Below, in pieces: positions 1 to 5,150 of a stretch of 64,000 nt of DNA. Both the position numbers and the translations under genes were made by a program. This DNA comes from an uncultured Clostridia bacterium (GTDB lineage: Bacteria; Bacillota; Clostridia; UBA1381), in contig CALXZP010000038.1 of assembly GCA_944393255.1 (NCBI GenBank), forward strand, positions 1-64,000, read 5' to 3'. The notes under the pieces were generated by a model. It saw nothing but the letters and a program-made list of their open reading frames with translations. It had not been told where the DNA came from and did not search any database. The stretch's first letter is position 1; every line of letters starts with the position of its first letter.

Positions 1-13
1 CTGGAACGGACAT

Positions 14-148
14 TTGCGAAGCAAAAGGCACTGAGCGACGAAGTCGCGAGGTGACCGCTTTCGTAGAGCCTGTAATAAACGCAGGTGACACGAAGCAAAA
101 GGCATCGAATGACGAGCGGAGCGAGTCATGAGATGACCGCTGACGCAG
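14..148. repeat. Two tandem structured repeat units
   Basis: Two related units share the block CGAAGCAAAAGGCA (17-30 and 91-104) and the block TGACCGCT (52-59 and 134-141). Between these blocks each unit has a small hairpin: GCGAC/GTCGC (35-39 with 43-47) in the first and ATGAC/GTCAT (109-113 with 125-129) in the second. Two stem positions change together, so the pairing is kept, which suggests a structured DNA or RNA element rather than coding sequence. No gene is visible in 1-231 and the left edge of the window may cut a longer array. Confidence 0.5.
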
Positions 149-231
149 CACCGCTTATCTACAACGCATGGTCAAAAGATTCATCATAAAATGTCAGCAT
201 GTGTGCAGTTTTGAAGGTACAACCTTCATGA

Positions 232-304
232 TCCTCCTTAGCTCAGTCGGTAGAGCATGCGGCTGTTAACCGCAGTGTCGTTGGTTCGAGTCCAACAGGG
301 GGAG
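232..304 (+). tRNA. tRNA-Asn (GTT)
   Basis: Cloverleaf with acceptor stem TCCTCCT/AGGGGGA, discriminator G304, D-arm, anticodon loop with GTT at 265-267 and T-arm with GGTTCGAGTCC. CCA is not encoded; the bases after G304 are TTA. First of three tRNAs in the same direction, separated by 30 and 5 bases. Confidence 0.95.
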
Positions 305-334
305 TTAGGGCATGAAGCCTGAACAAAAGAGATT

Positions 335-409
335 GGCTCCATGGTCAAGCGGTTAAGACACCGCCCTTTCACGGCGGTATCGCGGGTTCGATTCCCGCTG
401 GAGTCACCA
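335..409 (+). tRNA. tRNA-Glu (TTC)
   Basis: Acceptor GGCTCCA (335-341) pairs with TGGAGTC (399-405); discriminator A406 and an encoded CCA (407-409). The anticodon stem CCGCC/GGCGG (361-365, 373-377) closes a loop CTTTCAC with anticodon TTC at 368-370. The T-loop GGTTCGATTCC is canonical. Confidence 0.95.
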
Positions 410-414
410 TATAC

Positions 415-491
415 GGGCCATTAGCTCAGTTGGTTAGAGCATCCGGCTCATAACCGGACGGTCTGGGGTTCGAGTCCCTGATGGCCCACCA
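415..491 (+). tRNA. tRNA with CAT anticodon (Met or lysidine Ile2)
   Basis: Acceptor GGGCCAT/ATGGCCC with encoded ACCA end (488-491). The anticodon stem TCCGG/CCGGA (442-446, 454-458) closes a loop CTCATAA with CAT at 449-451. CAT-bearing tRNAs are elongator Met, initiator Met or Ile2 (lysidine-modified). The A-T closing pair of the acceptor and lack of a GGG/CCC anticodon stem argue against initiator. Elongator Met and Ile2 cannot be separated by eye. Confidence 0.9.
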
Positions 492-638: not shown

Positions 639-1166
639 TTATTCGTTCGTCGCGAACCGTGTGTGTCTATATTTATTGTGTGAGTAATTATAGTGTTTAA
701 GACAAAATTCAGCCTCGTATTTGTCTGGTGTCTTGTACTTTAATGTTGCATGCGGGCGTTCTTTGTTAAATCTGAACTGGGATTTGTCTCGTTTGTTGCG
801 GAAGATATGATTATAGTATGTGCCTTTAGCGACTTTTAGAGATTCACATAATGTGTTGACATTGTATTCGGAGGATAGTTTTTCAATTTCATGTAGTCTG
901 TCTTGCAGTGGTGAAGTTGCTGTACAATCTGCGGTTTGTAATATGGTAATAATACGGTTTAAGCGTCCAACTTTCCTTTTGAGTCCATTAAATTCACGTA
1001 CATTTATTGCGATGGGTTTATTGAGATTGTCCTTGTACGTTTTAACCCATGAGTAAAACGTACTGCGAGCTATACTGACATCATCGGTTATAGTGTTGAC
1101 TGATTCGCCTGATAAATAGCGATTGATTAACATTTGTTTTTCCTCTTGTGTGAGGTTTGTGTTCAT
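639..1166 (-). pseudogene. IS3-type transposase with the catalytic core deleted
   Basis: A 175-residue product with a good ribosome site (AAGGAGG) before its ATG. Residues 1-55 look like the helix-turn-helix of an IS3-family OrfA (EEKQMLINRYLSGESVNTI, then RSTFYSWVKTYK). Residues about 95-130 match the beginning of OrfB (YNVNTLCESLKVAKGTYYNH). Then, with no DDE integrase core, the sequence jumps to the OrfB C-terminal signature NKERPHATLKYKTPDKYE. About 150-200 residues with the catalytic acids are therefore missing, and OrfA and OrfB regions are in one frame. It should not transpose by itself but could still bind DNA. It is divergent from the nuclease-helicase gene. It could be a relic, or a retained DNA-binding regulator. 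Confidence 0.8.
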
Positions 1167-1261: not shown

Positions 1262-1290
1262 TTGATTTTTATGATAAATAATGATATAAT
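1262..1290 (+). promoter_or_regulatory. Promoter of the nuclease-helicase gene
   Basis: TTGATT (1262-1267), a 17-base spacer, TATAAT (1285-1290). Transcription would start near 1297, about 50 bases before the chosen start codon. Confidence 0.7.
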
Positions 1291-1346: not shown

Positions 1347-4300
1347 ATGTCTAAGATAACAAAAGAACAGATGCAGCGACATGTAAAAACACATACAGAG
1401 CGTTCTAATGATGATAACAATGCTGTTAATGCGCTTAAAGCCTTTTTTAAATCTGGAAAAATATATAGCAATTTCTCAAGCGAAGATAAATGGCCTAATA
1501 CAGATGGTTCATTTGAAATAGTACCAAAGCCAGAAATGGCGAGACAACCTAAACAAAATTTTATTGTTCAAATAAAAGGAACAAAAACAGCCAATATTAC
1601 GAAAGATGGAGTTGTCAAATATTACTTACAAAATCTTGCATTTCCGGCATATATAGCAAGTGAAATTACGTTAGATCCAGGAATCTTGTTTGTTGTACTA
1701 AACCCAGGCATGAGAAATCAAGAGAGGATTTTTTGGAAGTATATGTCGTCTAATTTTATTGCTTCTATTGATTTTGACAAGGGTTCTAAGACTATTGATT
1801 TCACTTGTGATGATGAAATTGAAAATACAAATGAATCAGAAGATGAATTTGTAAAAAAACTTGAATATATCTCTGCTACTCACTCATATGTAAAACAACT
1901 TGAGTCGAATGAGTACACAAAAGAGGATGTTGTTAAAATAATAAATACACGCTGTGAGAATATATCAGAAATAATTAAAACAGGAATCGACTTTAGCTAT
2001 AAAAGAGATAAAATTTCTCGTAAAATTTTAACCGAATTAGAGGATTTATGTAAGGCTACATTATTAGCAAATGGATTACAATATTATAGTTTAATGAATC
2101 TTCGCATTGCGTGGGAACTAGCTGTGCTGAATATAGATACAAAATTTTTGTCTGTTTTTTTGCAGGGGTTGCGATATATAGGTTTGAAAGTGCCAGAAGA
2201 TGGACAATATGAAAGGTTGATGTTGAAATATTATAATTTTTTATGGAGAATAAGAGAATACTTAGATAATAAATTTCATTTAAAAGTACTGGAAAATTTA
2301 GAAGATTTTCCCTTGGAGAATAATGAAGAAGATAGAGAATATAATCAACTTTTGGCTGTGGCGATTGAGACTGTTGCCAATACATCTAATACAATACGCC
2401 CAAACAGATATTACATTCAAAAGAAAACTGCATTTTATGTTGGGAAGCAAAGATACTTTGAAGTTACTTTGCAGTTGGCGGATAAGTATGCCACAAAATA
2501 CAATAGATTGACCGTATACACTAAACTTGATATGTCTTCAGATTATTCTATAAAAGTGGGAAGCGCAAAAGCTAAAATCGACTTATGGGATAAACCAACG
2601 GAAATTAGAGTTATTACAGATTGGAAAGTGTCAATAGAGCCAGCTGCGTTGAACAAAATATCAAAAATCTTAATGTTTAATATAAAGCTATCATCTAATT
2701 ATAATGAGTATCATGATTTAATGAATTTTTTAACAACAACTGGTATGAATATACTTGATTTTATTGACTTAAGCGAGGAAAGATTTAATAAATATTTAGA
2801 TTATATTTACAAAAATGTAAATACGCGTTATTTTGGAGATGTTCTTATAGCATTACATGATAAATTTGGTAAAAAATACACTATTTTTGGAGGGCGTACG
2901 ATTCGATATGCATTGATTAAATTACAAGAAGATTTGATAGAAGATTTGATACCATATAATAATGCAGATGCTTTAAATATTGATGATGCATATTTGTCAA
3001 AAAAGTGTTACGCATTTGAAAAAAATCCTATACTATATAATCTTCCAAATAGAAAAACAAATGGGAAGACTATTTCTACAGATGTGTTGAGGGCAATAGG
3101 AGGCAGCAATATAGGTAGATATTTACCATATGTTAGAATGAAGTATTTAATTAATGCTACTGGTGAATTGTATCAACTAAAGAACGATATAGAGTATCTT
3201 GAAGATGAACAAACAGTGGCAGCCTATAATGATAAATTAACTCCATGGGATAGACAACAAGGACGTCAATTAATTGAGAAGGATGGCTTTGTATATTTAG
3301 ACGAATATGTGGAAAACACACTCTCCATTTTGCGAGAACTTGCAAAATTTTCTAGAGAGGGGAACGCTGGTCAAGAACAGCTGAATAAAATATTTGTTGA
3401 AAAGCTTAACACAATTTTGATTGATGAAACAAAGATAATGGTATTAAAAAACATTTTTGTTAATTCTAAAATTATGATGATTTATGGAGCTGCAGGCACA
3501 GGAAAAACTACTTTGATGAATAATATCTCAGACTTAATGAATGGCAGAAGGAAATTATTTTTAGCTAAAACACATACGGCTTTAGAAAATTTGAAAAGAA
3601 GAATAGAAGCACCTGGCTCTGATAGTGAGTTTATGAGCGTTGATAAATTTATAAAGTCAAGAGTGTCAAATAATTATGATGTGATTTTTGTAGATGAGTG
3701 CAGTACAATTGACAATAGAACGATGCTTCTTTTATTGAAAAATCTTAGCGGGGAATCACTTTTGATATGTGCTGGTGATATATATCAGATAGAATCAATA
3801 GACTTTGGGAATTGGTTTTTTTATGCAAAAGAGATTCTGCCTACAAAATCAGTAGTTGAGCTTGATAGTGTGTGGAGAACAGAAGACGAAAAAATTAAGA
3901 ATCTTTGGGATGAGGTAAGATTTTTGCGCCCTATTATTACAGAAAGATTAGCTATAGATGGCCCTTTTTCAGAAAATATTAGTGGAAAAATACTTGAAAG
4001 AGATGATGAAGACGAGGTTGTTTTGTGCTTAAATTATGATGGGAAATTCGGATTAAATAGCATTAATAATTATTTCCAAAATGCAAATCCATCCAGTGAA
4101 ACATTTGAATGGTATGATTGGAAATATAAAGTAGGGGATCCGATTTTATTTAATGAGAATAAAAGATTCCCGATGCTATATAATAATTTAAAAGGCACGA
4201 TTATAGATATACAAGAAGAGGAAACAAATATTACCTTCACAATTGATATATCGACAGTTTTAACGGCAGTCGACTTTCGTAATTCAGAAGTGGAATGGAT

Positions 4301-4673
4301 TTCGAATACTGATAAATTAACACGTATTCAATTTACTATATACGCAAAGGATGATAGCAAAATAGAAAGAGAATATGAAGAATCAAGGATGAGATCTATT
4401 GTACCTTTTCAATTAGCATATGCTGTATCAATCCATAAGGCGCAAGGTTTAGAATATAATTCGATAAAGATTGTAATTCCAAATAATAATTCTGAAAAAA
4501 TATCTCATGGTATTTTTTATACAGCCATAACTCGAACAAAGAAAAAGTTAAAAATATTTTGGAGCGCGGATACTATGCAAAAAGTCATTAGCGGATTTTG
4601 TACCGAAAAGGAAAAATCAATAAGCCTTGATATAATCAAGGAAGAGCTAAAAAATATGGAGAGTAAGGAATAA
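1347..4673 (+). CDS. Nuclease-like domain plus SF1 helicase, putative defence protein
   Basis: A 1108-residue protein. The N-terminal ~180 residues resemble DUF4365-type restriction-endonuclease-fold domains: D53 in WPNTDGSFEIV and Q75-x-K77 in NFIVQIKGT fit a PD-(D/E)xK active site. A middle ~500 residues is not recognised. The C-terminal ~400 residues carry superfamily 1 helicase motifs: Walker A GAAGTGKTT (K720), Walker B VIFVDECST (D783, E784), GDIYQ, an arginine in SVWRTED, YAVSIHKAQGLEYNS, and YTAITRTKK (R1063). Family knowledge: nuclease-helicase fusions of this shape act in anti-phage immunity (Nhi is one example); a function here is inferred. An in-frame ATG at 1335 is the alternative start; 1347 has GGTGA in front. 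The gene is far more AT-rich than its surroundings, which suggests transfer. No methylase or partner gene is adjacent. Confidence 0.75.
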   Translation: MSKITKEQMQRHVKTHTERSNDDNNAVNALKAFFKSGKIYSNFSSEDKWPNTDGSFEIVPKPEMARQPKQNFIVQIKGTKTANITKDGVVKYYLQNLAFPAYIASEITLDPGILFVVLNPGMRNQERIFWKYMSSNFIASIDFDKGSKTIDFTCDDEIENTNESEDEFVKKLEYISATHSYVKQLESNEYTKEDVVKIINTRCENISEIIKTGIDFSYKRDKISRKILTELEDLCKATLLANGLQYYSLMNLRIAWELAVLNIDTKFLSVFLQGLRYIGLKVPEDGQYERLMLKYYNFLWRIREYLDNKFHLKVLENLEDFPLENNEEDREYNQLLAVAIETVANTSNTIRPNRYYIQKKTAFYVGKQRYFEVTLQLADKYATKYNRLTVYTKLDMSSDYSIKVGSAKAKIDLWDKPTEIRVITDWKVSIEPAALNKISKILMFNIKLSSNYNEYHDLMNFLTTTGMNILDFIDLSEERFNKYLDYIYKNVNTRYFGDVLIALHDKFGKKYTIFGGRTIRYALIKLQEDLIEDLIPYNNADALNIDDAYLSKKCYAFEKNPILYNLPNRKTNGKTISTDVLRAIGGSNIGRYLPYVRMKYLINATGELYQLKNDIEYLEDEQTVAAYNDKLTPWDRQQGRQLIEKDGFVYLDEYVENTLSILRELAKFSREGNAGQEQLNKIFVEKLNTILIDETKIMVLKNIFVNSKIMMIYGAAGTGKTTLMNNISDLMNGRRKLFLAKTHTALENLKRRIEAPGSDSEFMSVDKFIKSRVSNNYDVIFVDECSTIDNRTMLLLLKNLSGESLLICAGDIYQIESIDFGNWFFYAKEILPTKSVVELDSVWRTEDEKIKNLWDEVRFLRPIITERLAIDGPFSENISGKILERDDEDEVVLCLNYDGKFGLNSINNYFQNANPSSETFEWYDWKYKVGDPILFNENKRFPMLYNNLKGTIIDIQEEETNITFTIDISTVLTAVDFRNSEVEWISNTDKLTRIQFTIYAKDDSKIEREYEESRMRSIVPFQLAYAVSIHKAQGLEYNSIKIVIPNNNSEKISHGIFYTAITRTKKKLKIFWSADTMQKVISGFCTEKEKSISLDIIKEELKNMESKE

Positions 4674-4763: not shown

Positions 4764-4795
4764 CAATCTTGTAGTGCAAACGCAACTATACACTG

Positions 4796-4845
4796 CCTAA
4801 GATATCCGATTTATTTTATCTCGGATACCTTAGGTATTTTTTTAT
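4796..4845 (+). terminator. Terminator after the helicase insert
   Basis: CCTAAG..ATCCGA (4796-4801, 4804-4809) pairs with TCGGAT..CTTAGG (4821-4826, 4829-4834), followed by a run of seven T from 4836. Confidence 0.8.
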
Positions 4846-4905
4846 TCTAATTACCTATGTTTTCTCATATGTGTTTCAGATTTTTATAAATTTACTAAAG
4901 ACTGC

Positions 4906-4934
4906 TTGAATTCTTTGCTTGTTTATGTTATAAT
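4906..4934 (+). promoter_or_regulatory. Promoter reading into the structured repeats
   Basis: TTGAAT (4906-4911), 17 bases, TATAAT (4929-4934). The -10 element is itself the first part of the repeat unit, so a transcript from here would begin inside the unit and continue toward the VOC gene at 5219. Confidence 0.55.
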
Positions 4935-5150
4935 AAACACAGTAGCAGAAGCAAAGCCGTTTTTCGGCTTTGCCTCGGGATGTGTTTATTGTAACGGAGT
5001 GAAGCAATGCTAAACACATTGCACTAATGTTATAATAAATACAGTTAATGAAGAAAAGCAGCGTTGCTGCTGTTTCTTCGGCATGTATTTATTGTAACGG
5101 AGTGAAGCAATGCTATACGCATTGCACTTATGTTATAAATAAATACAAGG
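4925..5150 (+). repeat. Tandem structured repeat, two units of about 102 bases
   Basis: Each unit starts TTATAATAAAYACA and has an outer stem (AATAAACACA 4932-4941 with TGTGTTTATT 4981-4990; AATAAATACA 5034-5043 with TGTATTTATT 5084-5093), an inner hairpin (GCAAAGCCG/CGGCTTTGC in unit 1; a different AAGAAA..GCAGC/GCTGC.. stem in unit 2), a constant block GGAGTGAAGCAATGC and a final GCAATG/CATTGC hairpin. The outer stem shows a C-G to T-A double change. A third copy lies at 39056-39165. The 545 bases between the helicase gene and the VOC gene hold this, the 20-base repeats and a terminator; no gene is supported. Confidence 0.75.

What the first reader, a model, noticed from the sequence alone, without database searches (positions are those of the whole stretch)
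1347..4673. Stand-alone nuclease-helicase gene in an AT-rich insert beside a tRNA cluster
One gene combines a PD-(D/E)xK-like N-terminal domain (D53, Q75, K77) with a complete set of SF1 helicase motifs (K720, D783/E784, R1063) and a ~500-residue middle part I do not recognise. It is strongly AT-rich, has its own promoter and terminator, and is placed just after three tRNAs beside a transposase remnant. Known nuclease-helicase fusions such as Nhi confer phage immunity; this one is larger, and its middle region may define a new type. The defence role is inference.
Basis: partly seen in the sequence, partly recalled or inferred. Interest (0 to 1): 0.72.

Follow-up and report, generated by a model that had tools for sequence, protein, structure and literature searches.

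The report
DREN nuclease fused to defence-type helicase
A gut-type clostridial genome carries one large gene that joins a DNA-cutting domain, best known from a bacterial suicide-immunity system (SPARDA), to a DNA-unwinding motor from a catalogued but untested candidate phage-defence family; relatives sit in restriction-modification operons, so it is probably an anti-virus enzyme of an undescribed combination.

Summary
One intact gene (1347-4673, 1108 aa, ~30% GC in a ~50% GC genome) joins an N-terminal PD-(D/E)xK nuclease to an SF1 helicase with all core motifs. The nuclease is a DUF4365/DREN domain: AlphaFold models it confidently, the nine best solved-structure matches are all the DREN-APAZ subunit of SPARDA, and D53, Q75 and K77 match the SPARDA catalytic D41/Q60/K62 and are invariant in 46 homologues. 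Residues 198-1102, including the 'unrecognised' middle, are PADLOC's unvalidated defence candidate PDC-S53 (E=1e-268), so the middle is not a new type. PDC-S53 normally stands alone (~900 aa, in plasmids, phages and R-M loci). The DREN-fused form is a separate, well-supported clade of mostly gut bacteria, which I did not find described. At least five fused relatives, including a 64%-identical one, follow hsd genes in type I restriction-modification operons. Neighbouring recombinases and patchy, sometimes broken copies indicate a mobile accessory gene. It is not RecD2 or SPARDA, and no link to Nhi was found. Most likely mechanism: a helicase-tethered nuclease that engages invading DNA and destroys it, perhaps collaterally. 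Antiviral activity is inferred, not shown. Novelty: new variant of a known kind.

The parts
1347..4673 (+). DREN (DUF4365) nuclease - PDC-S53 helicase fusion gene, 1108 aa
   Evidence: 46 full-length proteins of the same architecture
1347..1940 (+). N-terminal DREN/DUF4365 PD-(D/E)xK nuclease domain (residues 1-198); catalytic D53, Q75, K77
   Evidence: Pfam PF14280 4.6e-5 (homologue 3.3e-8); AF2 pLDDT 87; Foldseek top nine hits SPARDA DREN-APAZ, E 8e-5 to 9e-4; residues as in PMC12205087
1938..4652 (+). PADLOC PDC-S53 region (residues 198-1102)
   Evidence: PDLC05035 E=1.3e-268, 892 bits, profile 7-895 of 900
1932..3416 (+). Middle region (residues 196-690): helical bundle, five-stranded barrel at ~354-428 (OB-like, weak), helical part
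   Evidence: AF2 pLDDT 90; no significant PDB match, OB/SSB proteins recur among weak hits (E 0.15-0.6)
3450..4600 (+). RecD-like SF1B helicase motor (residues ~702-1085): Walker A GAAGTGKT 714-721, DECS 783-786, GDIYQI 810-815, SIHKAQGLEY 1028-1037, TAITR 1059-1063
   Evidence: AAA_30 2.9e-17, UvrD_C_2 4e-9; TIGR01447/01448 ~1e-33; motif residues invariant in 98 proteins apart from conservative T/S and K/R changes
4794..4836 (+). Rho-independent terminator-like hairpin followed by a T run
   Evidence: -19.1 kcal/mol, z -5.7
1262..1290 (+). Possible promoter TTGATT-17-TATAAT with TG before -10 (not above chance)
639..1166 (-). Truncated IS3-family transposase remnant
   Evidence: NF033516 positions 1-125 of 369, E 1.4e-16
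232..491 (+). tRNA-Asn, tRNA-Glu, tRNA-Met cluster bordering the AT-rich stretch

Best explanation
This is a single-gene accessory immunity enzyme: the PDC-S53 defence-candidate helicase with a DREN nuclease fused in front. Shown: domain identity, predicted fold, intact active sites, an exclusive fused clade, and R-M operon and mobile-element context of relatives. Inferred: the RecD-like SF1B motor (probably 5'-3' by family), helped by an OB-like middle that may hold single strands, loads on invading DNA at ends, gaps or replication forks (in some hosts alongside type I restriction) and moves along it. Motor engagement brings DREN domains together on the substrate, and DREN, which in SPARDA is inactive as a monomer, then cuts nucleic acid without sequence specificity. 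I think direct destruction of the engaged invader DNA is somewhat more likely than collateral cell-wide cleavage, since each nuclease is tethered to a motor on its target; I put this at about 55:30, with something else taking the rest.
For: PDC-S53 match over residues 198-1102. DUF4365 by Pfam; confident PD-(D/E)xK model whose nine best PDB hits are all SPARDA DREN chains. Catalytic D41/Q60/K62 of NbaSPARDA, on beta2/beta3/beta3, match D53/Q75/K77 on the same strands; TmuRE Q62/K64 likewise. The triad is invariant in 46 of 46. The fused clade is monophyletic (support 0.998, long stem). Homologues end or extend type I R-M operons: L026, L029, L041, L053 with hsdM, hsdS and hsdR; L040 with hsdM and hsdS; unfused L076, L079, L085, L086, L092. 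Background hsdS occurs in only 25 of 95 genomes of the order, so chance adjacency at 5 of ~41 loci is very unlikely (my rough expectation is ~0.03). Serine recombinases nearby. Patchy: 3 of 95 genomes in the order, 5 of 398 in the phylum. Nearest relative lacks the insert at this site.
Against: No antiviral test exists for PDC-S53 in the papers I could search. This copy has no defence gene beside it. PDC candidates were themselves picked by embedding in defence operons, so the R-M context is partly circular for the family, though less so for the DREN-fused clade. The unfused core works without the nuclease elsewhere, so the helicase may have another role. DREN in SPARDA needs filament-driven tetramers; nothing here shows that this protein oligomerises. 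The OB assignment is weak.
Confidence: 0.72

Rival explanations
1. Collateral (abortive) effector: the helicase part is only a sensor, and once it meets foreign or damaged DNA the DREN domain is released or oligomerised and degrades nucleic acids throughout the cell, stopping the infection by dormancy or death, as SPARDA and (with other folds) Hachiman do.
For: DREN is a collateral nuclease in SPARDA. A sensor helicase controlling a nuclease is the Hachiman logic (PMC12278908 abstract). The nuclease is conserved but separable from the core.
Against: Here the nuclease is covalently tied to the motor, with no known trigger or oligomerisation element. No direct evidence either way.
Confidence: 0.3
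2. A replication, transfer or maintenance helicase of mobile elements (phage Dda-like or plasmid helicase) that has picked up a nuclease, rather than a host immunity enzyme.
For: Unfused relatives sit in phages (phi1605, TPDSL_ph1, IMG/VR contigs) and plasmids and are annotated Dda-like or RecD-like. Serine recombinases lie nearby.
Against: In the two annotated phages it runs opposite to most neighbouring genes including primase or polymerase, near R-M or methyltransferase genes. No conserved relaxase or Rep partner recurs in the fused clade. Recurrent position at the end of hsdMSR operons.
Confidence: 0.15
3. A housekeeping recombination/repair helicase (RecD2 orthologue) with an extra domain.
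For: RecD/RecD2 models match at about 1e-33.
Against: Scores 114-117 bits against curated cut-offs of 310-500. Present in 3 of 95 genomes of its order. Own genome has a separate weakly similar helicase on contig C9.
Confidence: 0.03

Closest known systems
PDC-S53 (PADLOC phage-defence candidate, single gene)
   Same: Whole 900-residue profile matched; helicase motifs and middle region conserved; type I R-M context of relatives
   Different: Adds a ~190-residue DREN nuclease; scores ~900 bits against 1158-1355 for unfused members; separate clade
DREN-APAZ effector of SPARDA (short Argonaute system)
   Same: Same nuclease fold and catalytic D-QxK residues at the N-terminus
   Different: No APAZ or PIWI domain and no Argonaute found; the sensor part is a helicase
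Nhi (single-gene nuclease-helicase, Staphylococcus epidermidis)
   Same: One protein combining nuclease and helicase; works-like comparison
   Different: No Nhi-named model matched; different nuclease family and RecD-like motor; larger (comparison from review PMC12904381 and general knowledge)
RecD2 / exonuclease V alpha
   Same: SF1B motor domain homologous
   Different: Far below family cut-offs; different N-terminal two thirds; accessory distribution
Hachiman HamAB
   Same: Nuclease effector governed by a DNA-engaging helicase
   Different: Two genes, SF2 helicase and different nuclease (from general knowledge; nuclease-helicase complex per PMC12278908)

Membership tests
PDC-S53 (PADLOC) | Full-length match to profile PDLC05035 | tested here: met
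   E 1.3e-268, profile 7-895/900
PDC-S53 (PADLOC) | Protein is the ~900-aa core only (usual architecture, not a stated rule of the family) | tested here: not met
   Extra N-terminal DREN domain; fused clade scores lower than unfused
PDC-S53 (PADLOC) | Linked to or embedded in defence operons | tested here: met
   For homologues in type I R-M operons; not for the window copy itself
PDC-S53 (PADLOC) | Antiviral activity | not testable with these tools
   No paper names PDC-S53; most PDCs unvalidated per PMC12988326
DREN / DUF4365 nuclease | PD-(D/E)xK fold with D and QxK active site | tested here: met
   Pfam score 23.9 is just under the 24.3 cut-off for the window protein, but 34.1 for homologue L004
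DREN / DUF4365 nuclease | Activation by tetramerisation, collateral cleavage | not testable with these tools
   Known for NbaSPARDA only
SPARDA | APAZ domain and partner short Argonaute | tested here: not met
   No APAZ or PIWI among Pfam matches of the protein or the most frequent neighbour families
Nhi | Sequence membership | tested here: inconclusive
   No Nhi-named PADLOC model at E up to 1; I did not confirm that the library holds one
RecD2 (TIGR01448) | Score above equivalog cut-off | tested here: not met
   113.7 bits against 500

The most novel reading that the evidence does not exclude
A new single-protein immune system in which a RecD-like helicase replaces Argonaute as the sensor that switches on the DREN nuclease, often installed as the last gene of type I restriction-modification operons as a second line behind restriction.
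Probability: 0.45. Interest if true: 0.7.

Novelty: new variant of a known kind. Interest (0 to 1): 0.5.

Why it matters
It links two things so far separate: a catalogued but untested defence candidate (PDC-S53) and an effector nuclease whose activation has only been explained in Argonaute systems. The fusion gives PDC-S53 a testable biochemical output. If DREN can be switched on by a helicase, it is a module that different sensors can drive, and its recurrent place behind hsdMSR would make a layered R-M plus nuclease-helicase defence directly testable.

Tried and rejected
Single-sequence scan of viral contigs with the window protein found nothing; the alignment query worked. Sequence-profile search of PDB with the N-terminal and middle alignments found no relative; only the fold comparison did. 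A separate DREN gene beside unfused members was looked for and not found, so the fused form is not simply a joined two-gene system in this sample. A housekeeping RecD2 reading was rejected on scores and distribution. The 278-aa phage partner gene has no Pfam family and does not match the DREN profile. The exact insertion junction at the window locus could not be fixed: the contig starts 231 bases before the tRNAs, and relatives keep only the downstream side. The founding preprint of the PDC candidates (10.1101/2024.01.29.577857) is not held. One fold search was left unused.

Full report
What is there. The gene at 1347-4673 is intact and encodes 1108 aa. It lies in a ~30% GC stretch between a tRNA-Asn/Glu/Met cluster with a truncated IS3 transposase on one side and ordinary metabolic genes at ~45-54% GC on the other. 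A strong terminator-like hairpin follows it; the promoter match is at chance level. The nearest relative in the genus matches the window from ~4875 onwards, but has a MatE-like transporter gene (my reading of the translation) where the insert lies. Only 3 of 95 genomes of the order and 5 of 398 sampled in the phylum carry the family, some copies broken, so it is an accessory gene.

The nuclease. Pfam finds DUF4365 (PF14280) at 4.6e-5 in the window protein and 3.3e-8 in homologue L004. AlphaFold on an alignment of 43 proteins gives pLDDT 87 and pTM 0.85, with a helix-strand-strand-strand-helix-strand core. The nine best matches in solved structures are all DREN-APAZ chains of SPARDA complexes (E 8e-5 to 9e-4), followed by a Holliday-junction resolvase and EcoRV. 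In NbaSPARDA the catalytic residues are D41 on beta2 and Q60, K62 on beta3 (PMC12205087), and in TmuRE Q62 and K64 (PMC10810196). Here D53 lies on the second strand (52-58) and Q75 and K77 on the third (70-79). All three are invariant in 46 of 46 fused proteins. That correspondence is by strand position and motif, not by a residue-level structure alignment, which the tool did not print.

The helicase and middle. PADLOC model PDC-S53 covers residues 198-1102 at 1.3e-268. The motor is RecD-like but falls far short of the RecD and RecD2 cut-offs. The core motif residues are invariant in 98 proteins, apart from conservative T/S at 721 and one K/R at 1031. The middle, residues 196-690, is modelled with pLDDT 90. 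No PDB entry matches it significantly, but among the weak hits single-strand-binding OB-fold proteins recur (Rim1, SSB, LEF-3, editosome OB proteins), which fits the five-stranded barrel at about residues 354-428. I treat this as a hint only.

Relatives. A scan of 85,000 genomes gave about 550 relatives, and I examined the best 77 loci plus viral, plasmid and phage hits. They fall cleanly into ~1100-aa fused proteins and ~900-aa unfused ones. The fused ones form one clade with support 0.998 and a long stem. By record title they come mostly from Clostridia, with Erysipelotrichales, Phascolarctobacterium and Gastranaerophilales members, which suggests transfer between distant hosts. Unfused proteins fit the PDC-S53 profile better (1158-1355 bits against ~900), so the profile represents the unfused form. 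No separate DREN gene accompanies the unfused members in the sampled loci.

Context. In L053, whose protein is ~64% identical to the window protein, the order on one strand is hsdM, hsdS, a TIR/SEFIR gene, hsdR, then the fusion gene, with gaps of 2-55 bases. L026, L041 and L029 show hsdM, hsdS, hsdR and then the fusion gene, with one or two extra genes between in L041 and L029; L040 has hsdM and hsdS and two further genes before it. Unfused L076, L079, L085, L086 and L092 have the same kind of arrangement. Specificity genes occur in only 25 of 95 genomes of the order, so finding them closely upstream in at least five of about 41 fused loci is far above a rough chance expectation of about 0.03. 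Serine recombinases and other restriction genes are also common within three genes. This agrees with how PDC families were found, by embedding in defence operons (PMC12988326); for PDC-S53 itself the context is therefore partly circular evidence, but the DREN-fused clade adds further loci.

Mechanism. The best-supported reading is a nuclease tethered to a translocating helicase that attacks invading DNA. Shown: domains, intact active sites, context. Inferred: the substrate, the polarity (5'-3' by family), the trigger, and whether cutting is confined to the engaged molecule or collateral. DREN in SPARDA is inert as a monomer and is activated by tetramers on a filament, so some form of clustering on DNA is expected here too; this is inference.

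Verdict. It works like other nuclease-helicase defences, but is filed as a DREN-fused variant of PDC-S53, not as Nhi, RecD2 or SPARDA. I found no paper naming PDC-S53 or describing a DUF4365-helicase fusion in the library searched, which misses most subscription journals and preprints.

Noticed in passing
window 4923-5148: An intergenic repeat of about 225 bases (with 'gttataataaacacag' and 'tgtttattgtaacggagtgaagcaatgc') has over 40 matches elsewhere in the same genome; it looks like a dispersed MITE/REP-like element, and another repeat match (4875-4935) occurs in relative L150.
   Followed up: partly
L011 5125-8988, L012 5131-8998, L098-L115: In 16 phage/viral loci the unfused PDC-S53 helicase is preceded by a conserved co-directional gene of ~280-460 aa without a Pfam family (weakly phrog_6948, unknown), and often followed by a small Cro/CI-type HTH gene: a possible prophage-borne two- or three-gene system.
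   Followed up: partly
L053 2929-13321; L029 1128-13309: TIR/SEFIR-domain genes are embedded in the same type I R-M operons as the DREN-helicase gene, in two loci with different gene orders.
   Followed up: partly
L041 9216-9938, L029 8101-8787: A YgjP-like metallopeptidase gene sits between hsdR and the DREN-helicase gene in L041, and a similar gene follows hsdR in L029.
   Followed up: no
L022, L052, L058, L064, L065: Several fused homologues are split by frameshifts or stops, suggesting frequent loss, as for other accessory immunity genes (assembly errors not excluded).
   Followed up: no
window 1-180: Short imperfect repeats ('gaagcaaaaggca...gacga') upstream of the tRNA cluster.
   Followed up: no
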